Positions 14,302 through 39,933 of a DNA stretch of 40,114 nucleotides are shown here, piece after piece; position 1 is the first letter of the stretch, and each line of letters opens with the position of its first letter. The translations under genes were made by a program, and so were the position numbers. The notes beneath the pieces were generated by a model that saw only the letters and a list, made by a program, of their open reading frames with translations, did no database searches and had not been told where the DNA came from. This DNA is from Rhodovulum strictum. GTDB lineage: Bacteria > Pseudomonadota > Alphaproteobacteria > Rhodobacterales > Rhodobacteraceae. The stretch covers positions 1 to 40,114 of the forward strand of contig NZ_WJPO01000033.1 of assembly GCF_009649175.1 (NCBI RefSeq), read 5' to 3'.

Positions 14302-14375
14302 GCCCTGCCATAGCCCCCCGCCCCGGTCTTGGCGAGGGGAATCCGGTTTGCAGCCCGTGCCCCGGGGCAATCCGG

Positions 14376-16343: not shown

Positions 16344-16519
16344 GATCCCTCGCGTTCTGGCTGGTTGCGCGTGGCCTGCCGACGGGTGGGACGCTGATCC
16401 TGATGCTGTTAATATAGCCTACAGAAGGGATCAAGTATTGCCAACCCCTCACATTGCCGCCAGCCCCCTTGCGCGGGCGGCGCGTTCGGCCGACAGCTTG
16501 GCGAACAAGGGGGATGGCG

Positions 16520-17143: not shown

Positions 17144-17165
17144 CCACCGGCAAGCCACTGCATGA

Positions 17166-19754: not shown

Positions 19755-19826
19755 TGCAGCGCCCTTTTATCCCTTCGCAGCATACGCCCATCGGGGCCTG
19801 TGGCAAGCGAAGCTTGGCGCAGGGGC

Positions 19827-22043: not shown

Positions 22044-22052
22044 GGGCTGTCC

Positions 22053-22997
22053 CTACTCGGCCGCGGCCGGCGCGTCGCCCGTCCAGCCCCCGGCATTGGT
22101 CTCGACAAAGGCATCGGCGCAGCGTTTCGCCAGCGCGCGCACCCGCCCGATATAGGCCTGCCGCTCGGTCGGCGAGATCACGCCGCGCGCATCCAGCAGG
22201 TTGAAGAAATGGCTGGCCTTGATGCACTGGTCATAGGCCGGATGCACCATGATGATCCGCTTGCCCGAGCGCGGATCAAGCTGCGGATGGTCCAGGATAC
22301 GCCCGCATTCCGCCTCGGCCGCCTCGAAGAAATGCAGCAGTTTCGCGGTATCGGCCACGTCGAAATTCCAGCGCGAATATTCCTCTTCGGTCTGACGGAA
22401 CACGTCACCGTATTTCAGCGGGATCGGCGCGTCGGGATCGTTGAAGGGCATGTCCATCACATGGTCGATGCCCAGCACATACATCGCCAGCCGTTCCAGC
22501 CCATAGGTAAGCTCGCCCGAAACGGGGCGGCAATCATGCCCGCCGACCTGCTGGAAATAGGTGAACTGGCTGACCTCCATCCCGTCGCACCAGACCTCCC
22601 AGCCCAGGCCCCAGGCGCCCAGCGTCGGGCTTTCCCAATCATCCTCGACAAACCGGATGTCGTGATAGTCGAAGTCGATCCCGATGGCGGCGAGCGAGCC
22701 GAGATACAGGTCTTGCAGATCGGGGGGGCTGGGTTTGATCAGCACCTGGTACTGGTAATAGTGCTGCAAGCGGTTCGGGTTCTCGCCATAGCGCCCGTCG
22801 GTCGGCCGACGCGAGGGCTGGACATAGGCCGCGGCCCAGGGGCGGCTGCCCAGCGCGCGCAGCGTGGTCGCCGGGTGAAAGGTGCCCGCGCCCACCTCCA
22901 TGTCATAGGGTTGCAGGATGGCGCAGCCCTTGGCCGCCCAGTAATCCTGAAGCCGCAGGATGATCTCCTGGAAACTGCGCGGTTTGCCGTCGCTCAT
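22053..22997 (-). CDS. glyQ: Glycyl-tRNA synthetase alpha subunit
   Basis: GlyQ holds the class II catalytic site that activates glycine and charges tRNA-Gly together with GlyS. The 314-residue protein shows the strongly conserved opening [18 protein letters not shown], then [20 protein letters not shown], the [19 protein letters not shown] motif and the [11 protein letters not shown] strand. The start at 22997 ([10 protein letters not shown]) agrees with relatives; an upstream ATG would add a non-conserved lead. glyS follows after 9 bases, without the extra small gene that sometimes separates the pair in related bacteria. A 162-bp divergent gap separates it from the exported SPOR-domain protein. 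Confidence 0.96.
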
Positions 22998-23159
22998 GGC
23001 GCATGGGCCCCTTTGCCGGTGAAGACGGGGTCTCAATAGGCAACAGGTGCAACAGGGTCAATCGAACCTGCGCGCCTGACAGAGGTTTGTCGTGCATCGC
23101 CCGGCGGCTTTGCTAGGGTCTCGGGGCGATTCGCACCCGTGGGTTGAACCTGGGGACAT

Positions 23160-24914
23160 ATGGAGTTTCCAAGACTTATGACGAGACTTGCCGCCGTTCT
23201 GATCCTGCTGATCGCCGCCGCCCTGCCCGCCGCCGCGCAAGAGCGCGTCTGGGTCCAGATCGAGGCCCACCCCACGCTGAACGAGGCCGAGGACCGCGCC
23301 CGGACCTATGCGGGGAATTTCGGCAATGTGGGTGCGTTCCGGCTGGCCTCGGGCTGGTACGGGATCGCGCTGGGTCCCTATGACCGGGCCGAGGCCGAGG
23401 CGGCGCTGCGCCAGTTGCGCGGTGGCGGGTCGATCCCGCGCGACAGTTTCGTGTCGGACGGGGGCGATTTCCGTCAGCAGATCTGGCCCGTGGGCGCCGC
23501 GCTGGACAGCCCCGCCCCGCAGCCCCCCGCCGAGCCCGCTGCCGCACCTGTCCCGGCCGAGCCCCCGGCGCAGACCACGCTGCCCGACGAAACCCGGGCC
23601 GAGGCGCTGCAAGCCGAACGCACTCTGGAACGCGAAGACCGCGCACTGATCCAGACGGCGCTGCAATGGAAGGGCCACTACAATCAGGCGATCGACGCCT
23701 CGTTCGGGCCGGGCACGCGCAACGCCATGGCCGCCTGGCAGACCGCCGAGGGGCACGAGCCGACGGGCGTTATGACCACGCGCCAGCGCGCCGACCTGAT
23801 CGCCGCCTATCAGGCCGAGACCGGGCGGCTGGGCATGGCCGCGCTTGACGAACGCGAGGCGGGCATCCGGATCGAGATGCCGCTGGGGCTGGTCGAATTC
23901 GACCGCTACGAACCGCCCTTCGTCCATTTCGGCCCGCGCGGCGACAGCGGGGTGCGGGTGCTGCTGATCAGCCAGCGCGGCGATCAGGCGACGCTGTACG
24001 GACTGTATGACATCATGCAATCGCTTGAAATCGTGCCGCTTTCGGGTACGCGCGAACGCGATGCCGCGTCCTTTACGCTGACCGGCCAGAACGCCCGCCT
24101 GCAATCCTACACCTATGCGCGGCTGATCGGCGGGGCGGTCAAGGGGTTTGCGCTGGTCTGGCCCGCGGCCGAGGATGAACGGCTGATGATGCGCGCCGCG
24201 ATGACCATGCGTGAAACGCTGGAATCGGTGCCCAATGCCGCACTCGACCAGACCATGGGCGAGGCCAGCCCGGAGCAGCGCGCCGACATGCTGGCGGGGC
24301 TGGAAATCCGCAAGCCCGACGAAACCCATTCGGGCTTCTTCGTGGATGCGAGGGGCACGGTTCTGACCGCCGTGAAGGGGCTTGAGGGCTGCAACCGCAT
24401 CACCATCGGCCATGATGTCGAGATGCGCCTGACGGCCAGCGAGTCCGCGCTGGGCCTTGCCGTGTTGAAACCCACCGTGGCGCTGGCGCCGATCGAATAT
24501 GCCAGCTTCCAGGCAAGGGTGCCGCGGCTGAGGTCAGAGGTCGCGGTGGCGGGCTTTTCCTATGGCGAGGTACTGGACCTGCCGGTGCTGACCAATGGCA
24601 CGCTGGCCGATCTGCGCGGGCTGAACGGCGAGGACGGCATCGCGCGGCTGGAAATCGAGGCGCTGCCCGGCGATACCGGCGGGCCGGTCTTCGACGCAGC
24701 GGGCGCGGTGCTGGGTGTTCTGCTGGCCCCCGCCGAAGGGGCGCGGCAACTGCCCGCCAATGTGCGCTATCTGGCCGATGTCGCCTCAGTCGGCGCCTTC
24801 CTGTCGGGCAACGGCATCGAGATGCGCGCCTCCGAGTCCGAGGGCGCGCTGCCGCCTGCGGTGCTGAACCGGCGCGCGGCGGACATGACGGTGCCCGTAT
24901 CCTGCTGGAACTAG
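23160..24914 (+). CDS. Exported SPOR / peptidoglycan-binding protein with a degenerate trypsin-like domain
   Basis: This 584-residue protein has a signal peptide (about 1-27, ending AAA-QE), a SPOR-like domain (about 28-105), a Pro/Ala-rich linker, a peptidoglycan-binding helical repeat (about 155-215, FGPGTRNAMAAWQ) and a C-terminal domain from about 385 with the outline of a trypsin-like protease (FFVDARGTVLTAV ... PGDTGGPVFDAAGAVLGVL). The catalytic residues look lost: Thr506 replaces the serine of GDSGGP, and the expected histidine after the GxVLT strand is absent. It is therefore probably a cell-wall-bound binding or scaffold protein rather than a protease. A start at 23178 (MTRLAAVL) is equally plausible. 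It ends 6 bases from the convergent trkH. Confidence 0.7.
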   Translation: MEFPRLMTRLAAVLILLIAAALPAAAQERVWVQIEAHPTLNEAEDRARTYAGNFGNVGAFRLASGWYGIALGPYDRAEAEAALRQLRGGGSIPRDSFVSDGGDFRQQIWPVGAALDSPAPQPPAEPAAAPVPAEPPAQTTLPDETRAEALQAERTLEREDRALIQTALQWKGHYNQAIDASFGPGTRNAMAAWQTAEGHEPTGVMTTRQRADLIAAYQAETGRLGMAALDEREAGIRIEMPLGLVEFDRYEPPFVHFGPRGDSGVRVLLISQRGDQATLYGLYDIMQSLEIVPLSGTRERDAASFTLTGQNARLQSYTYARLIGGAVKGFALVWPAAEDERLMMRAAMTMRETLESVPNAALDQTMGEASPEQRADMLAGLEIRKPDETHSGFFVDARGTVLTAVKGLEGCNRITIGHDVEMRLTASESALGLAVLKPTVALAPIEYASFQARVPRLRSEVAVAGFSYGEVLDLPVLTNGTLADLRGLNGEDGIARLEIEALPGDTGGPVFDAAGAVLGVLLAPAEGARQLPANVRYLADVASVGAFLSGNGIEMRASESEGALPPAVLNRRAADMTVPVSCWN

Positions 24915-24920
24915 GGGGTA

Positions 24921-26369
24921 TCAGGCGCGCCAGAACTGCGTGGTCAGGATCGCGAAGACCACCAGCAATTCCAGCCGCCCGATCAGCATGGCCATCGACA
25001 GGATCCACTTCGCCGGATCGTTCAGCCCGGCGAAGTTGCCCGCGGGCCCGATATGCTCGCCCAGACCCGGCCCGATATTGGCCAGCGCCGTCGCCGCCCC
25101 CGACAGCGCGGTGGTCGCATCCAGCCCCGTCGCGCTCAGCAGCACCGATGTCAGCCCCAGCGTGACCACGAAGAACACGAAGAACGACATCACCGAGGAC
25201 AGCACCTCGTCATCCACCGGCCGCCCGTCGAAACGCGGCTGGAACACCCCGTGCGGGGCGTAGATCTCCTTGATCCGCACCCGGATCGCCGAGAACAGGA
25301 TCTGGTAGCGGAAGACCTTGACCGAACAGGCTGTCGAGGCCGAGCACCCACCGATCAACCCGATGAAAAAGAACGCGATCATCGGGAATGACCCCCAGAG
25401 CTGGTAATCGGTGCTGGCATAGCCCGTTCCCGAGATGATCGAGACGACATTGAACATGCCCTCGCGGAACGCGTGTTCGGCATTGTCCGCGTTCACCAGG
25501 ACACGGTAGCCCGCCATCAGCAGCACAAGCCCGAAGATCAGGCTCAGATAGGTCCAGACCTGGCTGTCGCGCAGCAGCGGCCGGGCATGGCCCGCGACAA
25601 GCTGGACGTAACGCACGAAGGGCAGGCTGGCGAAGATCATGAACACGGACGCGACATATTCCGCCCCCCCCTGAAACGCCCCGAACGAGGCATCGCGGGT
25701 CGAGAAGCCGCCGGTCGACATCGTGGTAAGCGCGTGGTTCAGCGCGTCGAACGCACCCATCCCGGCCGCCCCATAGGCAAACCCGCAGGCCACCGTCAGC
25801 GCGACATAGATCCACGATATCTGCGAGGCGATCTGCGCCGCGCGCGGCAGCACCTTGCCCGAGGTCTCGAACGCCTCCGAGCGGAAGATCTGCATCCCCC
25901 CCACCCTGAGTTCCGGCAGAAAGGCCATCGCCACGACGATGATCCCGATACCGCCGAACCATTGCAGCATCGAGCGCCACAGAAGCGTTCCACGCGGCAA
26001 ATCGTCGAGCCCGGAAAAGACCGTCGAGCCGGTGGTGGTCATGCCCGACATCGCCTCGAAAAAGGCATCCACCGGCCGGGCATCGGGCAGGCCCAGCACG
26101 AAGGGCAGCGCGGCAAAGACCGGCAGAACCAGCCACACCCCCGACGTCAGCAAGAATATCTGTTGCAGTTTAAGCCGGTCGTCGGTCCCATTGGCGCAGG
26201 CCAGTGCCACCAACCCGCCCGCCAGCCCGGTAATGATCGCCGACTCGAGAAAGGCCCGCCAGTTCGGATTGCCCGCCGCCATGTCGACAGCCATGGGTAT
26301 CAGCATGGTCGCGCCCAGAATGGCGACCAGCAGGCCGATCACATATCCGACGGGACGCAGATCAAACAT
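24921..26369 (-). CDS. trkH: Trk-type potassium uptake membrane subunit
   Basis: TrkH forms the potassium-conducting pore of the Trk/Ktr system in the inner membrane and works with the cytoplasmic TrkA. The 482-residue protein shows four pore-loop repeats: MTTTGSTV, MSTGGFSTR, SGTGYASTD and GGCSASTACSVKVFR. The first three fit the selectivity-filter glycine pattern. The fourth differs from the enteric GGCSGSTAGG form, a variation I believe occurs in alphaproteobacteria. Helices flank each loop. No trkA is present in the window. It follows folE2 after 45 bases on the same strand. The ribosome site before the ATG at 26369 is weak. Confidence 0.88.
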   Translation of the reverse strand: MFDLRPVGYVIGLLVAILGATMLIPMAVDMAAGNPNWRAFLESAIITGLAGGLVALACANGTDDRLKLQQIFLLTSGVWLVLPVFAALPFVLGLPDARPVDAFFEAMSGMTTTGSTVFSGLDDLPRGTLLWRSMLQWFGGIGIIVVAMAFLPELRVGGMQIFRSEAFETSGKVLPRAAQIASQISWIYVALTVACGFAYGAAGMGAFDALNHALTTMSTGGFSTRDASFGAFQGGAEYVASVFMIFASLPFVRYVQLVAGHARPLLRDSQVWTYLSLIFGLVLLMAGYRVLVNADNAEHAFREGMFNVVSIISGTGYASTDYQLWGSFPMIAFFFIGLIGGCSASTACSVKVFRYQILFSAIRVRIKEIYAPHGVFQPRFDGRPVDDEVLSSVMSFFVFFVVTLGLTSVLLSATGLDATTALSGAATALANIGPGLGEHIGPAGNFAGLNDPAKWILSMAMLIGRLELLVVFAILTTQFWRA

Positions 26370-26414
26370 GACGCGCAGGCTTGGCCGGGCGCGCCGTGGC
26401 TGTCAAGCGGCGCC

Positions 26415-27518
26415 TCAGCCGTGATGGATGAGCGTGGCGAACAGCTTTGGGTCCAGGCTTTCCGCGGCAAAGGTCGGGCCCTCGGTCAGCACGCTGACCG
26501 CGTCATGGCTGTGCAGGCTTTCCTGATGGCTTGCCACGACCCGGAAATCGTCGATCCGCGGTTCGCGCTCCAGCGCCTCGCAAAAGAGCCGCGCGGCATC
26601 CTCGACAAAGATCGGATGCGCTGCGTTCAGTTCCGCGAATGCCTGTTCGTCCTCGCGCTTGACCATCACCTGCGTCTCGGTCGGCACCGCCGAGCGGCAG
26701 ATCTCGATCAGATCCTCGAACCACAAGCAAGGCGCGTCCGGGTCCAGCACCACCGAGATGCGCGCCACCGAACGTTGCGAATGGGGTGTCGCCAATTGGC
26801 CCCGCTCGCGCCGCGCGTGTTCGGAAAGTTCAAGCGAGCACGGACAGGTCGAGGAGTACACATAGTCCATGTGCATGATCTTCTTGACCACACCCGCCTG
26901 TTCCACCAGTTCCAGCGCGAAGTCGTAATATTGGAAACCTTCAAGTCCCGAACGCAGCGAACGCACCTTCATCGGGAACGAAAACCGCATCATGATGCGC
27001 GCATCGAAGCTTTCCAGATCGCTCTTGTAGCTGTCCAGCGCCGCCTCGATCACCTCGAAGCTGAAGGTCCGTTCGGCATGCGCATAAAAGCTGCGCATGA
27101 TGCGGGACATGTTGATGCCCTTCTTCTCGGCCTCGAGGCTGACCGTGCCGGTGACCGAGGTTTCCAGCGTCAGATCGCCATTGTCGCGGGTGAGGAACCG
27201 GATCGGCAGGCGGAAATTCGAGATGCCGACATGCTGGATGGGTCGCTTCGCGCCGCGGATCAGGCTGGCGGGGCCGTTCTGCAAGTCGGGCATGGTCGCC
27301 TTGTAGGCGTCATCGGCCTGAAACCCGTGCGGATAGGCGCGGCTGAGCGCGGGATAACCGTCAGCCGGACGGCCCGCCACCAGCGCGGCCAGCGCGGGAT
27401 CGACCGTGGACAGCTCTGCCGCGGGCGCCGTGTTCGCCCAGCGGCGCAGGATCTCAAGCGCGCGTTCTGCGTCCTCGCGCCCGGGCATCGCGTCGATCTC
27501 GCGGTTATGGACGTTCAT
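26415..27518 (-). CDS. folE2: GTP cyclohydrolase FolE2
   Basis: FolE2 converts GTP to dihydroneopterin triphosphate, the first step of folate synthesis, using metal more flexibly than zinc-dependent FolE; it is often induced when zinc is short. The 367-residue protein carries the family landmarks MPDLQNG, HVGISNFRLPIRF, KGINMSRIMRSFY, the active-site cysteine region YSSTCPCSLELSEHAR and the SHQESLHSHDAV end. About 75 residues precede the conserved core, longer than in the shortest relatives. The start at 27518 is backed by AAGGAGGGG. It sits between metZ (100 bases upstream) and trkH (45 bases downstream), all minus, possibly one transcript. No Zur-like box was recognised. Confidence 0.92.
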   Translation of the reverse strand: MNVHNREIDAMPGREDAERALEILRRWANTAPAAELSTVDPALAALVAGRPADGYPALSRAYPHGFQADDAYKATMPDLQNGPASLIRGAKRPIQHVGISNFRLPIRFLTRDNGDLTLETSVTGTVSLEAEKKGINMSRIMRSFYAHAERTFSFEVIEAALDSYKSDLESFDARIMMRFSFPMKVRSLRSGLEGFQYYDFALELVEQAGVVKKIMHMDYVYSSTCPCSLELSEHARRERGQLATPHSQRSVARISVVLDPDAPCLWFEDLIEICRSAVPTETQVMVKREDEQAFAELNAAHPIFVEDAARLFCEALEREPRIDDFRVVASHQESLHSHDAVSVLTEGPTFAAESLDPKLFATLIHHG

Positions 27519-27618
27519 CTTCGGCCCCTCCTTCTCGCATCGGTTCCGACGGAGCTTAAAGATGGGCGCCCGCGGCCAAATGTCCACGGAAAATGACAGA
27601 TTTTTCCCGCGCCCCCGA

Positions 27619-28788
27619 TCACCCCGCGTCGAGCGCGGATTTCAGGTCGGAAATCAGGTCGCCCGGGTCTTCCAGCCCGACGCTGAGCCGCAGCAGACCG
27701 GGGCTGATGCCCAGCGCGGCCTTGCGATCCTCGGGCAGGCGCTGGTGGGTCGTGGTGGCGGGATGGGTCGCGATGCTTTTCGCGTCGCCAAGGTTGTTCG
27801 AGATCTTCCAGATGTCCAGCCGGTCGAGCAGCGCAAAGGCCGCGTCCTTGCCGCCCGCAAGCTCGACCGCCAGCACCGTGCCGCCCTCGGGGAACAGCGC
27901 ATGCTGCGGATGGCTGGGCAGCCCCGGATAGATCACGCGCGAGAGTCGCGGATCGCCCTCCAGCGCCGCGGCAATCGCGCGCGCGCTGGCCGCCTGTGCC
28001 CGCACCCGCAGGTCCAGCGTTTCCAGACCCTTCAGCATCACCCAGGCGTTGAACGGGCTGATCGCGCCGCCGGTATGCTTCATGTAGGTCTCGACCGGCC
28101 CGCGCACCATGTCGCGGGGGCCAAGGATCATGCCGCCCAAGCACCGCCCCTGCCCATCCACATGCTTGGTGGTGGAATAGACCACCAGATCGGCGCCCTG
28201 CTCGATGGCGCGCGAAAAGACCGGCGTGGCAAAGACATTGTCGACGATCACCAGCGCGCCCGCCGCATGGGCCAGCGCCGCCACCGCCGCAATGTCGATC
28301 ACCTCCAGCGTGGGGTTCGAGACCGTCTCGAAGAACACAGCCCTTGTGCCCGGCGTGATCGCGTCGCGCCACTGATCCAGATCGGTGCCATCGACAAAAA
28401 CGACCTCGACCCCGAAGCGGGGCAGGATTTCCTCGAGGATATAAAGGCATGAGCCGAACAGCGCGCGCGCCGCCACCACCCGATCGCCCGAGCGGACCAG
28501 CGCCATAAGCGCGCCATTCACCGCCGCCATGCCCGAGGCCGTGGCAAAGCCCGCCTCGGCGCCCTCGATCGCGGCCAGCCGGTCCTCGAACATCGCCATG
28601 GTGGGGTTGCCGTAGCGGGCATAGATGAACTCGTCCGGCCCGGCTTCGAGAAACCGCGCCTCGGCCGCGCCGGCGCTGGGATAATCGAAGCCCTGGGTCA
28701 GGAACAGCGCTTCGGAGAGTTCCCCATACTGGCTGCGCCGCGCCCCGCCATGGACTCCTTGCGTCCGCTTCGACCACTTGCCCATCAT
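27619..28788 (-). CDS. metZ: O-succinylhomoserine sulfhydrylase
   Basis: MetZ makes homocysteine from O-succinylhomoserine and sulfide, the direct-sulfhydrylation route to methionine. The 389-residue Cys/Met-metabolism PLP enzyme has RYGNPTMAMFEDRLAAIEG, ATASGMAAV, the aspartate strand IVDNVFATP and the Schiff-base lysine K208 in YSTTKHVDGQGR. The SKRTQGVHGG opening and the GQGRCLGG sequence favour MetZ over cystathionine synthase or lyase, but paralogues are hard to separate by eye. Two adjacent ATG codons (28788 and 28785) are possible; the first has the better spacing to GGAGGG. The 239-bp leader upstream shows no riboswitch I can recognise. Confidence 0.85.
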   Translation of the reverse strand: MMGKWSKRTQGVHGGARRSQYGELSEALFLTQGFDYPSAGAAEARFLEAGPDEFIYARYGNPTMAMFEDRLAAIEGAEAGFATASGMAAVNGALMALVRSGDRVVAARALFGSCLYILEEILPRFGVEVVFVDGTDLDQWRDAITPGTRAVFFETVSNPTLEVIDIAAVAALAHAAGALVIVDNVFATPVFSRAIEQGADLVVYSTTKHVDGQGRCLGGMILGPRDMVRGPVETYMKHTGGAISPFNAWVMLKGLETLDLRVRAQAASARAIAAALEGDPRLSRVIYPGLPSHPQHALFPEGGTVLAVELAGGKDAAFALLDRLDIWKISNNLGDAKSIATHPATTTHQRLPEDRKAALGISPGLLRLSVGLEDPGDLISDLKSALDAG

Positions 28789-29027
28789 CGCCCGCGCCCT
28801 CCGCGCCCAAGGAAACCACCACCGTCCAGGACGTCGGGGGTCTGGCCCTGACCTCGCGAGCGGTTTGCATTGGCTGGCCCGCATAGCAGAGCCCGCACAA
28901 CGCCCGTTCCGCCATCGCGGCCCGGCACCTGTTGTCTAGGAGATCGCCCAAGGCTGTTCAAGCCGTGTCCTGACTTCGCGTTCGCCATGTGTTCCACCGC
29001 TGAAGCGGGGCACGCGAAAAGCCATCG

Positions 29028-30125
29028 CTATCCGTCACAGGCGGGGTTCGGCGCTGCATCCGGCAGGTCGACGACCATGACCTTATCGGGAAACCCCTCG
29101 CCCGCGGGGTCGAGCCGGTCCAGCATCGCCTGCGTTACCAGCAGCTCGCCGGTGTCGGTGATCATCAGCACGGCCGAGACCCCCATCGCCGCCGCAACCC
29201 GCGCCCAGTCGGCGCGGCCAGCAACCGCCAGCGCGGTGGCGGCGGCATCGGCCCGGGCGCCATCGGTGTCGAGCACCGAAACCGACACGATCTCGCGCAC
29301 CGGATAGCCCGTGCGCGGGTCGATGATATGGGCGAAGCGCTCGCCCTCATGCTCGAAATAGCGTTCGTAATTGCCCGATGTATAAAGCACCTCTCCCGGC
29401 CGCAACGACAGCGCCGCGACCGCCCCCCAGACAAAGGGATCGCGGATCGCCACCCGCCACGGGCGGCGGCCATGCGTGCCCAGCACGTTCACATCGCCCC
29501 CCGCATTCAGCACCGCGTTGTCGATGCCGCGCGCGCGCAGTTCGGCCGCCGCCAGATCCAGCGCCGCCCCCTTGGCAAAGCCGCCAAGGTCCAGCTGCAC
29601 GGCCGGGTTGGCCGAACGGATGTCTGTCCCATCCAGGTGCAGATCGGTGATCCGCGGCCGGGCGGCGACCAGTGCAGCAACCGACTCCGGCGAAGGCGGC
29701 GCGCCCTGGGGGGGCGTGTCGGCATGAAAGCCCCATAGCGCGACAAGGGCGCCGATCGCGGGATCGAAAAGGCCGCCGCTTTCGCAGGACAGGCGCCGGG
29801 CCTCGTGCAGGATCCCGGCAAGCCGGGGGTCGACCGCATGCGCCTCGCCCCGCGCGATGGCGGCGTTCAGATCATTCAGCGCGCCGGGGCGCCAGGCGTG
29901 CCAATCCCTGTGCAATTGCTGCAACACCTGGCCAACCGCCGCCGTTGCGGTCAGCGCGGTGTCACGCTGTTCGCCGCGGATCTCGATCTCGACCAGGGTG
30001 CCGAAGACATAAAGCGTTTCGCGGTGAACCTGGTCGTTCCGGGCCGCCTGCGCCGCCGCGAACGCGATCACCGTCAGAAGCGCCGCCGCCCAAAGGGCAA
30101 GGATGCGGGCGCCTGGCCGTTTCAT
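29028..30125 (-). CDS. apbE: FAD:protein FMN transferase (ApbE / RnfF type)
   Basis: ApbE covalently attaches FMN from FAD to Thr or Ser in periplasmic flavoprotein domains; its Rnf targets are RnfG and RnfD. The 365-residue protein has one N-terminal membrane anchor or signal segment (about 9-28) without a lipobox cysteine, so it is probably anchored or exported rather than a lipoprotein. Family motifs are clear: DLGGFAKGAALD (179-190), NAGGDVNV (208-215), HIIDPRTGYP (266-275) and DGARADAAATAL with the metal-binding aspartate. Its ATG overlaps the rseC-like stop (ATGA), so it is translationally coupled as the last gene of the fprA-fdxC-fdxN unit. This placement strongly suggests it serves the divergent rnf genes. 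Confidence 0.92.
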   Translation of the reverse strand: MKRPGARILALWAAALLTVIAFAAAQAARNDQVHRETLYVFGTLVEIEIRGEQRDTALTATAAVGQVLQQLHRDWHAWRPGALNDLNAAIARGEAHAVDPRLAGILHEARRLSCESGGLFDPAIGALVALWGFHADTPPQGAPPSPESVAALVAARPRITDLHLDGTDIRSANPAVQLDLGGFAKGAALDLAAAELRARGIDNAVLNAGGDVNVLGTHGRRPWRVAIRDPFVWGAVAALSLRPGEVLYTSGNYERYFEHEGERFAHIIDPRTGYPVREIVSVSVLDTDGARADAAATALAVAGRADWARVAAAMGVSAVLMITDTGELLVTQAMLDRLDPAGEGFPDKVMVVDLPDAAPNPACDG

Positions 30126-30622
30126 GTGCCGCCCGGTCTGCGCGCCGCGATCACCTCCTCGATGCGCATGCCCGAGACCAGCCCGCCCCGGCGGTCGGCA
30201 AGACGCGCGGGCAGAAGTGACAAGGCCAGAACCGGCAGGCACAGAAGCGCAACGGTCAGGTCCGACAACCCGAGCCCCGAGAAGATGGCGGCAGCCAGAA
30301 CCAGCGCGGCGGGGGGCAACAGATAGGCCAGCCCCGCGGCGCCAAGAAGCGCGTTGCCCGGCATCGAGACAACGACCTCGTCGCCCGGCGCCACCAAGAC
30401 GCTGCGGGGCAGACGGATTTCAAGGGGCGCAGAGTCCGCCATTTCCGCCAGCGCGCCCGCGCCGCACCCGGTCCGGGCGGCGCATTGGGCGCAGCCCGAC
30501 ATCCGGTCCGCGGTCAGCCGAACGACAGCGCCCTCGACGCCCACGACCCGCAGCGTCTGGCGCAGGGCCCGCGGATCGCCGGCCGCCTGATCCGGCGGGC
30601 AGGGGCGGCTGGCGTTCGGCAT
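30122..30622 (-). CDS. RseC/MucC-like membrane protein with an N-terminal Cys cluster
   Basis: This 166-residue protein has the RseC pattern: an N-terminal beta domain with three cysteines (C44, C47, C53 in CAQCAARTGC), then two membrane helices (about 91-114 and 121-139) and a basic tail. RseC homologues belong to the SoxR-reducing Rsx system of E. coli, which is the Rnf complex under another name, so its place among Rnf accessory genes is meaningful. The start at 30622 lies 11 bases after fdxN. The stop overlaps the apbE start by four bases. A role in assembly of, or electron transfer with, Rnf is inference. Confidence 0.8.
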   Translation of the reverse strand: MPNASRPCPPDQAAGDPRALRQTLRVVGVEGAVVRLTADRMSGCAQCAARTGCGAGALAEMADSAPLEIRLPRSVLVAPGDEVVVSMPGNALLGAAGLAYLLPPAALVLAAAIFSGLGLSDLTVALLCLPVLALSLLPARLADRRGGLVSGMRIEEVIAARRPGGT

Positions 30623-30886: not shown

Positions 30887-32495
<1,609 letters not shown>

Positions 32496-32548
32496 CACGT
32501 TGGGCGCTCCTTTCCGATGGCCTGCGGCAGGCTTCTGACCCAAGTGTA

Positions 32549-32617: not shown

Positions 32618-32633
32618 TGTCCGCTGTCCGACA
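32618..32633. promoter_or_regulatory. NifA upstream activator site shared by two divergent operons
   Basis: TGT (32618-32620) and ACA (32631-32633) flank ten bases, the exact TGT-N10-ACA NifA consensus. It is the only such match I found in the 308-bp gap 32496-32803. It lies 53 bases from the fprA -24 element on one side and 72 bases from the rnfA -24 element on the other, so one NifA site could serve both. The rest of the gap holds the two promoters and one further palindrome and no gene. Confidence 0.8.
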
Positions 32634-32803: not shown

Positions 32804-33385
32804 GTGCCCGAATTCTTGATGATCCTGCTCGGCACGGCGCTCGTGAACAACGTGGTGCTGGTCAAGTTCCTTGGCCTGTGCCCGTTCATGGGCGTGTCGC
32901 GAAAGATCGACGCGGCGATCGGCATGGGGCTGGCGACGACCTTCGTGCTGACCCTTGCTGCGGCGGCAAGCTGGGCGATCGAGACGCTGATCCTGGTGCC
33001 GCTGGACCTGGGCTTCCTGCGCATCCTCAGCTTCATCCTGGTGATCGCCGCCATCGTGCAGTTTACCGAAGCGGTGCTGCGCAAGGTCTCGCCGGGGCTT
33101 TACCGGGCGCTCGGCATCTACCTGCCGTTGATCACGACGAATTGCGCGGTGCTGGGCGTGGCGCTTCTGAACATCCAGGAGGGGCACGACTTCGTCCAGA
33201 GCCTGCTTTACGGCTTCGGCTCGGCGCTGGGCTTTACCGCGGTGCTCGCCATCTTTGCGGGCATGCGCGAAAAGCTGGCGCAGCTTGCCGTGCCCGCGCC
33301 CTTTGCCGGGCCTCCGATCGCCTTCATCTCTGCCGGTCTTCTGTCCATGGCCTTCATGGGCTTTGCCGGTCTGGTTCCGAACTGA
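32804..33385 (+). CDS. rnfA: Rnf complex subunit RnfA
   Basis: RnfA is a six-helix inner-membrane subunit of the Rnf complex, which couples ferredoxin redox chemistry to ion transport across the membrane. With RnfE it binds an intramembrane [2Fe-2S] cluster. The 193-residue protein shows the family sequences [20 protein letters not shown] and [12 protein letters not shown] with the two conserved cysteines. A GTG start at 32804 is chosen: it gives exactly the usual length and has AAGGAG seven bases upstream, whereas the upstream ATG at 32786 is not preceded by a ribosome site. It is the first gene of a tightly packed operon driven by the sigma-54 promoter. Confidence 0.93.
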
Positions 33386-33404: not shown

Positions 33405-33974
33405 ATGCTTCTCGCCGCCACATCCATGACCGCCATGGGCCTGGGACTGGGCCTTCTGCTGGGGCTCGCCGCGCGCAAGTTCCATGTCGAGACGCCCCCC
33501 GTCATCGACGAGATCGAGCGCATCCTGCCCGGCACGAATTGCGGCCAATGCGGGTTCCCCGGCTGCCGCGCCGGGGCCGAGGCCCTGGCCGGGGGCACGG
33601 CGCCGATCAACCTGTGCCCGCCGGGCGGGCGCGAACTGGCACTGCAACTGTCCGAAATCCTGGGCGTCGATCCCGGCGCGGGCGGCGATCTGGGCGGGAT
33701 GGAGGAGGCCGAGCCGATCGTCGCCTTCATCTTCGAGGATCACTGCACCGGCTGCACCAAATGCTACAAGCGCTGCCCGACCGACGCCATCGTGGGCGCG
33801 AACAAGCAGATCCATACCGTGATCGTCGATGCCTGCATCGGCTGCAATGCCTGCATCGAGGTCTGCCCGACCGAGGCGATCATCCACCGCACGAAACCCA
33901 GAACCCTGCGCAACTGGTACTGGGACCGCCCCGGCCAGATCGAGCAGACCGGCGAAACAAGGAGATCGGCATGA
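33405..33974 (+). CDS. rnfB: Rnf complex iron-sulfur subunit RnfB
   Basis: RnfB is the membrane-anchored ferredoxin-interacting subunit. The 189-residue protein has one N-terminal helix (about 3-23), a 4Fe-4S domain of the Fe-S type (C46, C49, C54, C71 in GTNCGQCGFPGC...LCPPGG) and two ferredoxin-type clusters (C114, C117, C120, C124 and C144, C147, C150, C154, each ending CP). All twelve cluster ligands are present. The start at 33405 places the helix at the very N-terminus as in relatives. Its stop overlaps the rnfC start (ATGA), indicating translational coupling. Confidence 0.95.
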   Translation: MLLAATSMTAMGLGLGLLLGLAARKFHVETPPVIDEIERILPGTNCGQCGFPGCRAGAEALAGGTAPINLCPPGGRELALQLSEILGVDPGAGGDLGGMEEAEPIVAFIFEDHCTGCTKCYKRCPTDAIVGANKQIHTVIVDACIGCNACIEVCPTEAIIHRTKPRTLRNWYWDRPGQIEQTGETRRSA

Positions 33975-35521
33975 GCATCTTTCCCCTTGCCGGGCGGTTC
34001 GATCCGGCGCGGCTGTTTTCCTTCCGGGGCGGCATCCACCCCGAAACCCGCAAGTTCCTGAGCGCCGATTGCGTGATCGAGGACATGCCCGTTCCACAAC
34101 TGATCCGGGTGCCGCTGCAACAGCATATCGGCGTCGAGGCCGAGCCGCTGGTACAGCGCGACGACATCGTTCTGAAGGGCCAGCTGATCGGCAAGGCGCG
34201 CGGGCCGGTCTCGGCCAACATCCATGCGCCCACCTCGGGCCGGGTCATCGCGGTCGGCCATTTCACCGCGCCCCACCCCTCGGGCCTGCCGGTGCCGACC
34301 ATCACCATCCGCCCCGACGGTGCCGACCAGTGGGGTCCGCGGCTGGCGCGGCTGCGTCCCGAGAATGCCGAACCCGAGGAAATCGCCGCCAAGGTCGCCG
34401 AAGCCGGGATCGTCGGCATGGGGGGCGCGACCTTCCCCGCCTCGGTCAAGCTGAACCTGCGCGCCAAGTATGACCTGCACACGCTGGTCGTGAACGGCGC
34501 GGAATGCGAACCCTACCTGACCTGCGATGACCGGCTGATGCGTGAACGTCCCGAGGAAGTCGCGGACGGCATCGCCATCATGGCGCGGGCGCTGGGCGTG
34601 CGGCAGGTGATCGTCGCCATCGAGTCGAACAAGCCGCAGGCGATCGAGGCGATGGGGCGGCACAAAAGCGTCCTTGGCTACACGCTGCGCATCAAGGCCG
34701 TGCCCACGCAATACCCGATGGGATCGGAAAAGCATCTGGTCAAGACTGTCACCGGCAAGGAGACCCCGGCCCGTGCGCTGACCGCCGAACTGGGCATCGT
34801 CGTGCATAATGCCGCGACCGCCCATGCGGTCCACCTGGCCGTACGCTATGGCGAACCCTCGATCTCGCGCGTGGTCACGGTATCCGGGCGCGGCGTGGCG
34901 CGTCCGGCCAATGTGCGGGTGCCGATCGGCACCTCGGTCTCCGATGTGCTGGCGCATTGCGGCGGGCTGGTCGAAGAACCCCAACGGCTGCTTCTGGGCG
35001 GACCGATGATGGGCCAGCCGATCCAGAACCTGCGCGTGCCGATCGTCAAGGGCACCAACGGCATTCTCGCGCTGACCAAGGCCGAAACCCGCAAGCCCGG
35101 CGTGATGCCCTGCATCCGCTGCGGGCTGTGCGTGCAGGTCTGCCCGATGGGCCTGACGCCGTTCGAGTTCAACACCAAGATACAGGCGGGCGATCTGGAC
35201 GGTGCCGCGCGGGTCGGGCTGCTTGATTGCATCAGCTGCGGCTGCTGCTCGTTCACCTGCCCCTCGAACATCCCGCTGGTGCAGACCATCCACTACGCCC
35301 GCGGCAAGCTGGCCGAAAAGGAAGGTCGCAAGCACCGTCAGGAAGAAACCAAGCGGCTGGCCGCAGCCCGCACCGCGCGCGAGGAGGCCATCCAGCAGGC
35401 CAAGCGCGATGCCATGGCCAAGCGCAAGGCCGAGATGGCCGCCAAGAAGGCCCGCGAGGCCGAAACCGGCACCAAACCATCCGCCGCCGAGGCGTCGCTG
35501 AACGGGGAATCGGTGAAATGA
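33971..35521 (+). CDS. rnfC: Rnf complex NADH-binding subunit RnfC
   Basis: RnfC is the cytoplasmic NADH:FMN module related to the 51-kDa subunit of complex I. The 516-residue protein starts with GGIHPETRK, has the nucleotide/flavin region around [13 protein letters not shown] and [18 protein letters not shown], then two [4Fe-4S] motifs: C381, C384, C387, C391 ([12 protein letters not shown]) and C420, C423, C426, C430 ([12 protein letters not shown]). A charged, Lys/Arg/Ala-rich helical tail of about 60 residues follows, likely a coiled coil, as in other proteobacterial RnfC proteins. AAGGAGATCGGC precedes the ATG. Both ends overlap neighbours by ATGA, linking its translation to rnfB and rnfD. 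Confidence 0.96.
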
Positions 35522-36588
35522 CCATCCCCCTTCTCGTCAGCGCGCCGCACACCCATTCGATGTTCAACGTCTCCCGCACGATGCTTGCGGTGATGGTCTG
35601 CCTCAGCCCCGCGACGATCTTCGGACTTTACCATTTCGGCTGGCCCGCGGTCTATCTGTTCGCGGTCACCATCGCCGCGGCGGTGCTGTTCGAGGTGCTG
35701 TGCCTTGCCATCTCGGGCAAGCCCATCCTGCGCTTTGCAACCGATGGATCGGCGGTGCTGACGGGCTGGATCCTGGCGCTGTCGCTGCCGCCCTGGGCGC
35801 CCTGGTGGGTGGGCGTCATCGGTGCGGGCATCGCCATCGTGATCGGCAAGCATGTCTTCGGCGGGCTGGGGCAGAACATGTTCAACCCCGCCATGGTCGC
35901 GCGGGCGATGCTCTTGGTGGCGCTGCCGGTGCAGATGACCACTTGGGTACCGGTTCTGCATGGCACCGACGGCCCGGATCATATCCAGGCGCTTGCCATC
36001 ACCTTCGGCGGCGGGGCGGATTTCGACGCGATCAGCAGCGCCTCGGTGCTGGGCCAGATCCAGAGCAAGCTGGATGCCGGCCTGCCGATGGCAAGCATCC
36101 TTGCCGAGGCGGGCAGCCTGAAGGACCAGTTCATCGGCTTCGTGCCCGGCTCGCTGGGCGAAACCAGCGCGGCCTTGCTGCTCGCGGGCGGGATCTGCCT
36201 GATCCTGCTCAGGATCATCACCCCCGTCATTCCGCTGAGCATGCTGGGATCGCTGGGCCTTCTGTCCGGCGCAGCCTGGCTGATCGCCCCCGACAGCTTT
36301 CCGCCGCCGCAGGTGCATCTGGCCTCGGGCGCGGTGATGCTTTGCGCCTTCTTCATCGCCACCGATTACGTGACATCGCCGATCACCGGTCTGGGCAAGA
36401 TGATCTACGGCATCGGGATCGGGGCGCTGATCTTCATCATCCGCAGCTGGGGTTCGTTCCCCGAAGGTGTGGCCTTTGCCGTCCTTCTGATGAATGCCTG
36501 CACGCCGCTGATCGACGAATACGCCCGGCCCCGCATCTTCGGGCGCACCCGTTCGGGCAAGCCGCTCGCCCTGCGAGAAGACAAATGA
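35518..36588 (+). CDS. rnfD: Rnf complex flavin-binding membrane subunit RnfD
   Basis: RnfD is a polytopic subunit, related to NqrB, that carries a covalent FMN and helps translocate ions. The 356-residue protein has about nine to ten helices, the opening [42 protein letters not shown] and late helices with [15 protein letters not shown]. The likely flavinylation site is S176 in D170-AISSAS. ApbE targets normally read D-x2-(S/T)-G-A-(T/S); here the glycine is replaced by Ser and the acceptor would be Ser. ATGA overlaps join it to rnfC and rnfG. The subunit call is firm; the modified residue is inferred. Confidence 0.94.
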
Positions 36589-37262
36589 CCGAGACCTCAC
36601 CCACTGCCCCGCCCCGCACCTCTGGTCCCGCCCGTTTCGCGGCGCTGCGCCATTCCCCGGCCTGGCATGGCCTGCTGCTGGCGGGATTCACGCTGGCCAC
36701 CGCGCTGATCCTGTCCTACTCGCACGATCTGACCCGGGACGCCATCGCGGACCGCCAGACCGAGGATCTGCTGGCCTCGCTTGCCCAGGTGATCCCGGCG
36801 CAGCTGCATGACAACGACCTGAGCGCGGACACAAGAACGCTCGCCGACGCGACCGAGGGCGCGGTGCCGGTCCATCTGGCGCTGCGCGGGGGCGAGGTGA
36901 CGGGCGTGGCCTTCGTGCTGACGGGCTATGGCTATTCCGGCGCGATCCGGGTTCTGATCGGCTTGGCCCCCGACGGCACGCTGCTGGGCGCGCGGGTGCT
37001 GTCGCACACCGAGACCCCGGGCCTTGGCGACAAGATCGAGATCGCCAAGCATGACTGGATCGAGGGCTTTGCCGGCCGCTCGCTGACCGATCCCGGCCCC
37101 GAGGGCTGGAAGGTGAAGAAGGATGGCGGCGTCTTCGACCAGTTCTCGGGCGCCACGATCACCCCCCGGGCCGTGGTCGGCGCGGTCCATCGCGGCCTTG
37201 CCCTGTTCGAGCGGCACCGCGACGCGCTTGTGACCCCGACCGGCGACAAGGAGGCTGAGTGA
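36585..37262 (+). CDS. rnfG: Rnf complex periplasmic flavoprotein subunit RnfG
   Basis: RnfG has one membrane helix (about 29-46) and a periplasmic FMN-binding domain with covalently attached FMN. The 225-residue protein carries the canonical ApbE target D185-QFSGAT, with T191 as acceptor, and the typical [13 protein letters not shown] segment. Its N-terminal 28 residues are Pro/Thr-rich and cytoplasmic. The FMN of this subunit faces the periplasm, so exported redox partners such as the flavoprotein encoded downstream could in principle reach it; that is inference. The ATGA overlap with rnfD and the TGATG overlap with rnfE indicate coupled translation. Confidence 0.94.
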
Positions 37263-37993
37263 TGTCCACCGATTTCGGCAGGATCGCGCGCAACGGGCTT
37301 TGGGACAACAACGTCGTCTTTGGTCAGCTTCTGGCGCTGTGCCCGCTGCTTGCGGTCACAGGCACCGCGACCAACGGGCTGGGGATGGGGCTTGCCTCGA
37401 TGGCGGTGATGGTCGGCGCCGGGCTTGCGGTGTCGATCCTGCGCAATGTCATCACCCCGGAAATCCGCATCCCGGCCTTCGTCCTGCTGATCGCCTGCCT
37501 GGTGACCGTGGTCGACCTGATGATGAACGCCTGGCTGCACGACCTGCACAGGATGCTGGGCCTGTTCATTCCGCTGATCGTCACCAACTGCGCGATCCTG
37601 GGCCGGGCCGAGGCCTTCGCCTCGCGCCAGAACCCGCTGGCCGCCGGCTTCGACGGGCTGATGATGGGGCTGGGCTTCACCGTGGCGCTGGTGGTGCTGG
37701 GCGCGGTGCGCGAAATCCTTGGCTCAGGCACGCTGTTTGCCAATGCCTCGCTGCTTCTGGGCAGCCAGTTCGGCTTTCTGGAAATGACCGTGATCCCCGA
37801 TTACCAGGGCTTCCTGCTGCTGATCCTGCCGCCGGGCGGGTTCATTGCGCTCGGCTTCCTGCTGGCGCTGAAATCGCTCGCCGACAACCGCAGCCGCGAC
37901 CGCCAGACCGGGCCTGACGAAAGGCCGCAGGAAAAGGTCTTTACCGCCGTCGGCGTGCTGTCCCCCAGAACCGTAGCCGGAGAAACGCCATGA
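37262..37993 (+). CDS. rnfE: Rnf complex subunit RnfE
   Basis: RnfE is the second six-helix subunit homologous to RnfA; together they form the pseudo-symmetric membrane core with a shared iron-sulfur site. The 243-residue protein shows GLWDNNVVFGQLLALCPLLAV and LFIPLIVTNCAILGRAEAFA with the two conserved cysteines, and a charged C-terminal tail (about 215-243). The ATG at 37262 overlaps the rnfG stop and has AGGAGG seven bases upstream; a GTG directly before it is less likely. The rnfH start overlaps its stop (ATGA). Confidence 0.95.
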   Translation: MSTDFGRIARNGLWDNNVVFGQLLALCPLLAVTGTATNGLGMGLASMAVMVGAGLAVSILRNVITPEIRIPAFVLLIACLVTVVDLMMNAWLHDLHRMLGLFIPLIVTNCAILGRAEAFASRQNPLAAGFDGLMMGLGFTVALVVLGAVREILGSGTLFANASLLLGSQFGFLEMTVIPDYQGFLLLILPPGGFIALGFLLALKSLADNRSRDRQTGPDERPQEKVFTAVGVLSPRTVAGETP

Positions 37994-38244
37994 TCGTGGG
38001 TGTCGCCTTTGCCAAGCCGACCGCGCAGGTCTGGAAGAACATCGACATTCCCGAAGGCGCCACCGTGCGCGACGCGATCGAGCGCTCGGGGCTTCTGGAC
38101 CAGTTCCCCGAGATCGACCTTGCCACCAACAAGGTCGGCATCTTCGGGGCGATCGTGAAACTCGACCAGCCCGTAAAGGAAGGCGACCGGGTCGAGATCT
38201 ACCGCCCGATCCATCCCGAAGCCGAGCTGCTCGAAAAGACCTGA
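37990..38244 (+). CDS. rnfH: RnfH, ubiquitin-like-fold Rnf accessory protein
   Basis: This 84-residue soluble protein of the RnfH/UPF0125 family closes the canonical rnfABCDGEH order found in R. capsulatus. It has the beta-grasp pattern with VGVAFAKPTAQVW, the helix GATVRDAIERSGLL, the NKVGIFGAIVKLDQPV strand pair and GDRVEIYRPI near the end. Its exact role is not settled. It overlaps rnfE by four bases. The next gene (exported flavoprotein) starts 41 bases downstream without any visible terminator, so the transcript probably continues. Confidence 0.93.
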   Translation: MIVGVAFAKPTAQVWKNIDIPEGATVRDAIERSGLLDQFPEIDLATNKVGIFGAIVKLDQPVKEGDRVEIYRPIHPEAELLEKT

Positions 38245-38284
38245 GCCGATGCGAAACCCGGTCCGACGCCAAGGAGACAGGACG

Positions 38285-39295
38285 ATGCAGACCCCCACCC
38301 GCCGCCGCTTTCTGGAATGCCTGCTGGCCGGTGCCGCTGCGACCGGCGCGTGCGGGCTGCTCGCCCCCGCCGCCTGGGCGCGCAGCCCCGCCATCATCGT
38401 CGGGGGTGGCCCGGCAGGCGCAGGCGCCGCGCTGGCGCTGCGCCAGGCACAGCCCGACACCCCCGTTCTGATGATCGAGCGCGATCCGACCCGGCTGGGC
38501 CGCAGCCCGGCGCTGGCCTTCGACCAACCCGCTGCCGGACCGGATCTCGACATGCTGCGCCGCGCCGGGGTCGAGGTCGTTCTGGACGATGTCGTGGATC
38601 TCGACTGGAAAGCCGCGCGGATCGAGTTGTTCAGCGGGCGGCGCCTGGCCTTCGATCGGCTTTTCATGGCGCCCGGAAGCGCCGCGCTGGACGAGGCCAT
38701 CCCCGGCCTCGATCCCAGAACCCGCCATCTCTGGCCCGCCGCCTGGGGCAATCTGCGCGAGGCCCGCCGCCTGAGGGCGCAACTGGCCAGCCTGCCCGGG
38801 ACGGGCCATGTCGTGCTGCGCCTGCCCGCCACGATCAGCCATCCCGAGGCCGCGCTGGGCCGCGCCCTCGATCTGGCCGCACTGCTTTCGCGCACACGGC
38901 CCGACAGCCGGTTGACCGTTCTCGAAGGCAGCCGCGGAACCGATCTGGCCGCGCGCTTCCAGAGCGAACTTGCCCGGCAGCGGCTGCATCTCGGGACCGA
39001 ATGGCTGGACGGCGCAAATGGCGGCACGGTCCTGCGGGTCGATGCTGCCCGGGGCGAGATCGAGACCGATGCCGGCCGGCTGCGCGCCGATGTGGTCAAC
39101 TTCGTCGGACATCAGGGCGCAGGCCCGATTGCCCGCACCGCCGGGCTGACCGATGACAGCGGATGGTGCCCGACCGATCCGCGCGGCCGCTCGACCCGCC
39201 ATCCCGAAGCCGTGATCCTGGGCGATGCGCGCAAGGCCGCCCGCCGCACGATCGCCGACGCCCTGCTGTCGGCACGCGCCGCGGCCTCGGCCTGA
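38285..39295 (+). CDS. Tat-exported FccB/SoxF-like flavoprotein, short and lacking one redox cysteine
   Basis: This 336-residue protein starts with a twin-arginine signal (TRRRFLE, residues 5-11, then a hydrophobic stretch to about 33). A FAD-binding Rossmann motif follows (IIVGGGPAGAGAALAL, 37-52), and the C-terminus (TDDSGWCPTD, then HPEAVILGDA) matches flavocytochrome c sulfide dehydrogenase flavoprotein subunits. C295 corresponds to one of the two redox cysteines of FccB; the other, in an RCPP context, has no counterpart here (region about 181-192 reads PATISHPEAALG). The protein is also shorter than the roughly 400-430 residues of FccB, and no cytochrome c partner is encoded nearby. AAGGAGACAGG precedes the start. 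It is likely co-transcribed with rnf; its function is unknown. Confidence 0.7.
   Translation: MQTPTRRRFLECLLAGAAATGACGLLAPAAWARSPAIIVGGGPAGAGAALALRQAQPDTPVLMIERDPTRLGRSPALAFDQPAAGPDLDMLRRAGVEVVLDDVVDLDWKAARIELFSGRRLAFDRLFMAPGSAALDEAIPGLDPRTRHLWPAAWGNLREARRLRAQLASLPGTGHVVLRLPATISHPEAALGRALDLAALLSRTRPDSRLTVLEGSRGTDLAARFQSELARQRLHLGTEWLDGANGGTVLRVDAARGEIETDAGRLRADVVNFVGHQGAGPIARTAGLTDDSGWCPTDPRGRSTRHPEAVILGDARKAARRTIADALLSARAAASA

Positions 39296-39354: not shown

Positions 39355-39933
<579 letters not shown>

What the first reader, a model, noticed from the sequence alone, without database searches (positions are those of the whole stretch)
38285..39295. Exported FccB-like flavoprotein embedded between rnfH and nifF
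A Tat-exported relative of the sulfide dehydrogenase flavoprotein sits inside a nitrogen-fixation electron-transport operon. It is shorter than FccB, retains C295 but lacks the counterpart of the second redox cysteine, and has no cytochrome partner. RnfG places a covalent FMN on the same side of the membrane. A new periplasmic input or outlet for Rnf electrons, or an Rnf maturation factor, is a reasonable hypothesis; it is not known to me as a described Rnf component.
Basis: partly seen in the sequence, partly recalled or inferred. Interest (0 to 1): 0.75.

Follow-up and report, generated by a model that had tools for sequence, protein, structure and literature searches.

The report
Rnf-dedicated exported flavoprotein, truncated FccB relative
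A gene usually mistaken for a sulfide-oxidising enzyme turns out to be a separate flavin-carrying protein that is exported across the membrane and travels with Rnf, the membrane machine that powers nitrogen fixation in Rhodobacter relatives; what it does there is not yet known, but it can be tested by a single gene deletion.

Summary
The ORF is real: 38285-39295 (+), 336 aa, Tat-type twin-arginine start, FccB-like FAD fold, 40 bases behind rnfH. It belongs to a distinct clade ('FccL' here), split from 48 FccB proteins by a long branch (SH-aLRT 100). I found it in 23 genomes (22 Rhodobacterales plus Rhodothalassium), in the nif-type rnf island every time: after rnfH in 19, after rnfF (ApbE) in 4. 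Starting from RnfG instead, 19 of 19 Rhodobacterales genomes with this RnfG also have FccL; 6 of 6 genus-mates without RnfG lack it. Compared with 100 FccB proteins, FccL has lost the FAD-linking Cys, both redox Cys and the C-terminal domain; no CxxCH cytochrome was called near it. Two papers together place a 'putative FCSD' (rcc03294) right after the rnf genes of Rhodobacter capsulatus, so the model organism probably has it, filed as sulfide dehydrogenase (inference). Most likely it is a dedicated periplasmic Rnf accessory, not a sulfide dehydrogenase. My preferred mechanism is flavin maturation with RnfF, possibly as a Tat-exported FAD carrier; electron exchange with RnfG is the main rival. 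No experiment supports either mechanism yet.

The parts
38285..39295 (+). fccL (name used here): Tat-exported FAD flavoprotein, truncated relative of FccB
38285..38386 (+). twin-arginine signal region (TRRRFLE), up to the first strand of the FAD domain
   Evidence: twin Arg invariant in 23 of 23; cleavage motif not conserved in the 22 N-termini listed
38402..38419 (+). FAD-binding GGGPAG motif (GxGxxG), residues 40-45
39167..39169 (+). codon of C295, the only invariant Cys of the clade; not a redox cysteine of FccB
37990..38244 (+). rnfH
37259..37993 (+). rnfE
36585..37262 (+). rnfG, with flavinylation motif SGAT
   Evidence: start counted by me
35518..36588 (+). rnfD; acceptor motif reads SSAS here
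   Evidence: ORF (start counted by me); matched in all 23 loci; motif; no family search was run on it
33971..35521 (+). rnfC
   Evidence: ORF (start counted by me); no family search was run on it
33405..33974 (+). rnfB
   Evidence: ORF (start counted by me); no family search was run on it
32819..33385 (+). rnfA
   Evidence: ORF (start counted by me); no family search was run on it
29028..30128 (-). rnfF (ApbE flavin transferase); no Tat motif found here; fccL lies directly behind rnfF in 4 of 23 genomes
32618..32633 (.). NifA-type upstream sequence TGT-N10-ACA between the divergent operons
   Evidence: present in 12 of 16 intergenic regions scanned; no shuffled control
39391..39933 (+). nifF flavodoxin; adjacency seen in this genome only

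Best explanation
FccL is a dedicated accessory of the nitrogen-fixation Rnf complex that arose from a sulfide-dehydrogenase flavoprotein and lost that chemistry. Shown by sequence: it has a Tat-type start, keeps the FAD-binding core, has lost the covalent FAD anchor, the redox disulfide and the C-terminal domain, has no cytochrome gene called nearby, and was found only with rnf. Inferred: it is exported folded with non-covalent FAD to the side of the membrane where RnfF (ApbE) needs FAD to attach FMN to RnfG and RnfD, and it works in that flavin-maturation step, most simply by bringing or handing over FAD, or by holding RnfG/RnfD during flavinylation. The 'dedicated Rnf accessory, not a sulfide dehydrogenase' part I hold at about 0.9; the maturation mechanism at about 0.4.
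For: 19 of 19 Rhodobacterales genomes found by RnfG carry FccL in the rnf island (synteny 17, 33). 6 of 6 genus-mates without RnfG lack it. In all 23 loci it is behind rnfH (19; gap -4 to 78 bases) or behind rnfF (4; gap 117-225), on the same strand. FprA of the same island was matched in 17 of 23 loci and RseC in 22, against 23 for FccL, rnfF, fdxN, fdxC and rnfA-H; for the four loci found only through FccL (L009, L010, L011, L014) the FccL count is true by construction. Cys losses. FAD motifs G40/G42/G45, E65, G313-D314 invariant in 23 of 23 except G41 and P43 inside the first motif. Model pLDDT 85.5, FccB fold. The simple Tat motif I searched for is absent near the start of RnfF in 17 of 23 loci (in one of the 6 others, L007, the match lies upstream of the likely start), so most RnfF probably cross the membrane without FAD (inference). 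PMC5655446 (passages) calls the periplasmic source of FAD for ApbE an open issue. The alphaproteobacterial ApbE relative NosX is itself exported by Tat (PMC7660919, passages). FccL distances follow RnfF as closely as any of the 10 genes compared (r 0.80).
Against: No experiment. RnfC correlates equally (r 0.80, partial r 0.65 for both), so that test does not single out RnfF. Other Rnf systems do without FccL: the gene list given for the nif cluster of Zymomonas mobilis, which includes rnfABCDGEH, names no such gene (PMC8594446, passages), and 0 of 8 other class genomes with an RnfG-like hit have it; one of them, G409, has a weak 26% match over 111 residues. One protein per FAD is an expensive delivery. 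The four rnfF-side loci form one clade (SH-aLRT 81), so this is probably one relocation, not four. RnfF of about five loci looks Tat-like. The genome searches score only the best few first-look candidates per genome in the large samples, so a miss is possible.
Confidence: 0.4

Rival explanations
1. Electron partner: FccL docks on RnfG/RnfD and passes electrons between its FAD and the periplasmic FMNs, as an input, an outlet or a safety valve.
For: The FccB fold is an electron-transfer fold; FAD motifs kept; RnfG has the SGAT/SGAS acceptor in 22 of 23 loci and AGAT in the other, so its FMN is expected on the same side; loss of the C-terminal domain should expose one flavin face (inference).
Against: No CxxCH ORF was called in 22 of 22 fetched loci. 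The substrate-oxidising disulfide is gone. A side exit or entry at the periplasmic FMN would short-circuit a proton-driven NADH-to-ferredoxin pump (inference).
Confidence: 0.27
2. Structural or protective cap of the periplasmic flavins of Rnf, or an assembly chaperone not involving FAD transfer.
For: Co-retention with rnfA-H in 23 of 23 loci; cleavage motif not conserved in the 22 N-termini listed, so it may stay anchored.
Against: Would not obviously need a conserved FAD site; not in the subunit table of solved Rnf complexes as far as the passages of PMC12174285 show, though those come from other lineages.
Confidence: 0.18
3. Periplasmic sulfide dehydrogenase flavoprotein (FCSD), as annotated in R. 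capsulatus, protecting or feeding nitrogen fixation.
For: FCSD_central Pfam domain, FccB is the closest solved relative.
Against: FAD-linking Cys in 0 of 23, redox Cys in 0 of 23 and 0 of 23; no CxxCH ORF called in 22 of 22 loci, while all three full-length FccB paralogues of this genome adjoin one; found in Rhodothalassium salexigens (L009), whose genome paper reports no flavocytochrome c or SQR genes (PMC11762602, passages).
Confidence: 0.05
4. Hitch-hiker: a gene kept only because it sits in a co-inherited nif island.
For: The island keeps its gene order across genomes; the Rhodothalassium FccL nests inside the Rhodovulum copies.
Against: dN/dS 0.19-0.35 over the 12 pairs computed; 62 invariant residues; kept after relocation, and in 6 loci where FprA was not matched.
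Confidence: 0.05

Closest known systems
FccB, flavoprotein subunit of flavocytochrome c sulfide dehydrogenase (PDB 1fcd, 3vrd, 5n1t)
   Same: Tat-type start, FAD domain, central domain, the Cys at C295/C274, overall fold
   Different: no FAD-linking Cys, no redox Cys pair, no C-terminal domain, no cytochrome partner called, linked to rnf; 34 columns conserved in at least 22 of 23 FccL whose residue is in under 10% of FccB
Rhodobacter capsulatus rcc03294, 'putative FCSD' (PMC9995734, passages)
   Same: by locus numbering it follows the rnfABCDGEH genes (rnfA rcc03287, rnfB rcc03288, rnfG rcc03291 in PMC6925177, passages)
   Different: its sequence was not seen here; identity with FccL is inferred from number and label
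ApbE/RnfF and NosX flavin transferases
   Same: same compartment; RnfF is encoded in the same island; NosX is Tat-exported (PMC7660919, passages)
   Different: unrelated Pfam family (ApbE); nothing suggests that FccL is a transferase
NqrM, maturation factor encoded with nqr (PMC12174285, passages)
   Same: an accessory encoded with a related pump (analogy only)
   Different: NqrM is a small membrane protein for the [2Fe-2S] site; FccL is an exported flavoprotein

Membership tests
FccB (FCSD flavoprotein) | FAD-binding FccB fold | tested here: met
   (TM-score by query length 0.79, 0.77, 0.78 to 5n1t, 3vrd, 1fcd)
FccB (FCSD flavoprotein) | Cys that binds FAD covalently (C42 in 1fcd; role recalled) | tested here: not met
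   99 of 100 FccB, 0 of 23 FccL
FccB (FCSD flavoprotein) | redox cysteine C161 (role recalled) | tested here: not met
   100 of 100 FccB; 0 of 23 FccL, His in 19
FccB (FCSD flavoprotein) | redox cysteine C337 and C-terminal domain (role recalled) | tested here: not met
   100 of 100 FccB; column absent in 23 of 23, FccL ends at residue 345-350 of a 429-residue reference
FccB (FCSD flavoprotein) | cytochrome c partner encoded alongside | tested here: not met
   no CxxCH ORF called in 22 of 22 fetched loci, with a crude gene caller (L188 and L189 hold only 378 and 589 bases beyond FccL); window neighbours are RnfH and NifF
FccB (FCSD flavoprotein) | sulfide:cytochrome c activity | not testable with these tools
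   needs purified protein
Two-domain disulfide reductase (thioredoxin reductase type) | active-site cysteine pair | tested here: not met
   only one invariant Cys, C295; 12 of 23 have a second Cys two residues on
Rnf complex component | encoded in the rnf operon or island | tested here: met
   23 of 23 loci
Rnf complex component | physical part of purified Rnf | not testable with these tools
   subunit table passages in PMC12174285 show no such subunit, for other lineages

The most novel reading that the evidence does not exclude
FccL is a Tat-exported protein carrier of FAD: it loads FAD in the cytoplasm, crosses the membrane folded, and gives the FAD up to RnfF, which flavinylates RnfG and RnfD. 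That would be a protein-borne flavin export route, unlike the Bfe and ECF transporters, made from a dismantled sulfide dehydrogenase.
Probability: 0.22. Interest if true: 0.85.

Novelty: new variant of a known kind. Interest (0 to 1): 0.62.

Why it matters
Rnf was discovered in R. capsulatus as the electron supply of nitrogenase. A constant companion of it appears to have been overlooked there because it is filed as a sulfide dehydrogenase. If it is needed for flavinylation it bears on how FAD reaches periplasmic ApbE, which PMC5655446 (passages) calls an open issue. It may also matter to anyone moving a Rhodobacterales-type rnf set into a new host, and sulfide-metabolism surveys that count rcc03294-like genes as FCSD would need correcting.

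Tried and rejected
Rejected: sulfide dehydrogenase (cysteines); recent truncation of an FccB (all 23 end within six residues of each other on the reference, one clade with a long stem); cytochrome partner nearby; a general Rnf component (0 of 8 other class genomes with an RnfG-like hit have FccL; two of these, L192 with rnfA-H and L191 with rnfB-H up to its contig end, show no nif gene among the 10 neighbouring ORFs scanned). No further FccL was seen in a sample of 388 phylum genomes (best non-own match 199 bits against 527; only 5 first-look candidates scored per genome as a rule) or in 72,556 plasmid records (53 with a match, best identity in the rows listed about 35%).

Led nowhere: mirror-tree distances do not separate RnfF from RnfC; -24/-12 promoter patterns were not found in the window interval. 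For an FccB relative linked to rnf in print I ran the searches; apart from rcc03294 none of the titles, abstract starts or passages that I saw makes that link, and most listed papers were not opened. I could not map conserved residues on the model because its coordinates were not among the files in the script box (listing), nor predict a complex with RnfG.

Dropped rows: the 100 FccB are those of 112 candidates with 400-450 residues and were found by similarity to FccL; the tree used 48 of these 100 (quick method, SH-aLRT only). The NifA-site scan used 16 of 23 loci. dN/dS is given for 12 of the 253 possible pairs: the 8 closest and 4 with the window. The scan kept 80 of 92 relatives and needs an exact match to one of six peptides. 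Genomes without RnfG in the order and class samples were not searched for FccL as such.

Full report
What is there. The window holds a divergent island: rnfF-rseC-fdxN-fdxC-fprA on the minus strand and rnfABCDGEH on the plus strand, followed 40 bases after rnfH by an ORF at 38285-39295 and then nifF. Family searches were run on FccL, RnfH, NifF, RnfE, RnfG, RnfF and the RseC-like protein; the names of rnfA-D, fdxN, fdxC and fprA rest on my reading of their ORFs and on the conserved island. The longer ORF start at 38249 is less likely than 38285, which has AAGGAGA before it. The product, 336 aa, begins MQTPTRRRFLE, a Tat-type motif, and carries GGGPAG at 40-45. Pfam finds Pyr_redox_2 and FCSD_central; the best sequence matches among solved structures are FccB proteins 5n1t, 3vrd and 1fcd. 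The genome has a nifH over the curated cut-off on another contig and three longer FccB paralogues with open frames of 441-476 residues and 28-34% identity. The host is a Rhodovulum: contigs of genomes in the same genus code match those of Rhodovulum robiginosum and R. tesquicola in length.

A separate clade. A scan of 84,980 species genomes returned ten loci at 51-68% identity and then a gap to 36% and below (80 of 92 relatives kept). A sample of 394 family genomes gave seven matches at 54-100% and then, among the matches listed, nothing above 37%. With genus and order samples this makes 23 distinct genomes including the window: 22 Rhodobacterales and Rhodothalassium salexigens (orders recalled). 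I call the clade FccL. Its 23 members are 324-342 aa, have 65% mean column identity, 62 invariant residues and an invariant twin arginine. On a tree of 71 rows, 23 FccL and 48 FccB, FccL is one side of a branch with SH-aLRT 100 and a stem of 1.1 changes per column. The Rhodothalassium copy falls among Rhodovulum copies, which suggests transfer.

Linkage to Rnf. All 23 copies lie in the rnf island. These four group together (SH-aLRT 81), so one move is enough to explain them. Because some loci were found through FccL itself, I also started from RnfG: 7 of 394 family genomes, 10 of 16 genus genomes and 8 of 390 order genomes have this RnfG, 19 distinct genomes in all, and 19 of 19 have FccL. In the genus the 6 genomes without RnfG have only matches of 29-32%. 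In the family sample the seven genomes with FccL are the same seven that have RnfG. Outside the family, 8 class genomes of a sample of 385 have an RnfG-like hit at the looser threshold and 0 of 8 has FccL; one has a weak 26% match over 111 residues. Within the island, FccL, rnfF, fdxN, fdxC and rnfA-H were matched in 23 of 23 loci, FprA in 17 and RseC in 22; for the four loci found only through FccL its count is true by construction.

Not a sulfide dehydrogenase. Against 100 full-length FccB proteins: the cysteine that carries FAD is Cys in 99 of 100 FccB and in 0 of 23 FccL; the redox cysteine corresponding to C161 is Cys in 100 of 100 and in 0 of 23 (His in 19); the redox cysteine corresponding to C337 is Cys in 100 of 100, and the stretch is absent in 23 of 23, because FccL ends at residue 345-350 of a 429-residue reference. 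The roles and numbers of these cysteines are recalled; their places in 1fcd were counted by me on the alignment (C42, C161), and C337 was taken to be the remaining Cys found in every FccB. No CxxCH ORF was called in any of the 22 fetched FccL loci, while each of the three FccB paralogues of this genome has one next to it (a crude gene caller; L188 and L189 hold only 378 and 589 bases beyond FccL; the window itself was not in that call). Rhodothalassium has FccL (L009), yet its genome paper reports neither flavocytochrome c nor SQR genes (PMC11762602, passages).

Structure. AlphaFold2 on the 23-row alignment gives mean pLDDT 85.5; Foldseek ranks the three FccB structures first, TM-score by query length 0.77-0.79. 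The key residues of the FAD-contact motifs (G40, G42 and G45 of GxGxxG, E65, G313-D314) are invariant. So FccL should bind FAD without a covalent bond and without the C-terminal domain; both statements are inferences.

Selection and regulation. dN/dS is 0.19-0.35 in the 12 pairs computed. A NifA-type TGT-N10-ACA lies between the divergent operons in 12 of 16 islands scanned, at 32618 in the window; 4 of 16 lack it, among them three (L011, L188, L189) of the four with FccL behind rnfF. No shuffled control was run, and no -24/-12 match was found in the window interval.

The model organism. In R. capsulatus rnfA is rcc03287, rnfB rcc03288 and rnfG rcc03291 (PMC6925177, passages), which puts rnfH at rcc03293 if numbering is continuous. 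PMC9995734 (passages) names rcc03294 as the putative FCSD of R. capsulatus and says the FCSD gene is not controlled by SqrR. I did not see its sequence; that it is FccL is an inference from number and label. Neither PMC6925177 nor PMC10936413, searched by term in their main text, mentions sulfide or a flavocytochrome. My literature searches showed no other link between an FccB relative and rnf in what I saw of their results.

Mechanism. RnfG and RnfD carry FMN attached by ApbE outside the cytoplasm (PMC12052999 and PMC12174285, passages). PMC5655446 (passages) calls the source of the FAD for this an open issue and describes the Bfe exporter. RnfF shows the simple Tat motif I searched for in only 6 of 23 loci, one of them (L007) probably upstream of its start; the related NosX goes by Tat (PMC7660919, passages). 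A Tat-exported FAD protein without covalent FAD, without redox disulfide and without a cytochrome fits a role in flavin maturation, most boldly as the FAD carrier. Against this: Zymomonas mobilis has a nif-linked rnf operon whose published gene list names no such protein (PMC8594446, passages), distance correlations favour RnfC as much as RnfF, and nothing has been tested at the bench. Electron exchange with RnfG remains the main rival.

Noticed in passing
window 35518-36588 and 22 related loci: The flavin acceptor motif of RnfD reads SSAS (serine acceptor) in 14 of 23 loci including the window, SGAS or SGAT in 4, SAAS in 1, and was not matched by my pattern in 4, whereas RnfG keeps SGAT/SGAS in 22 of 23 and AGAT in one. 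PMC12052999 (passages) says ApbE prefers threonine.
   Followed up: partly
window 31191-32500, FprA: FprA of the same island was not matched by tblastn in 6 of 23 loci, so it seems dispensable to the island, unlike FccL.
   Followed up: partly
FccL N-termini (22 of 23 listed): The twin arginine is invariant but an A-x-A cleavage motif just before the FAD domain is not conserved, so some FccL may stay anchored in the membrane.
   Followed up: no
L009 (Rhodothalassium salexigens): Its FccL nests with Rhodovulum copies and its rnf island has the same gene order without FprA, pointing to horizontal transfer into another order; only FccL was put on a tree.
   Followed up: partly
FccL alignment, two residues after C295: 12 of 23 members read WCPC, 8 WCPT and 3 WCPV; unexplained.
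   Followed up: no
window 10803-28884: The ten further ORFs of the window scanned by Pfam look like ordinary chromosomal genes where they match anything (glycyl-tRNA synthetase subunits, TrkH, GTP cyclohydrolase, TonB receptor, PEP-utilising enzymes), so no other nif gene was seen beside the rnf island here; nifH is on another contig.
   Followed up: no
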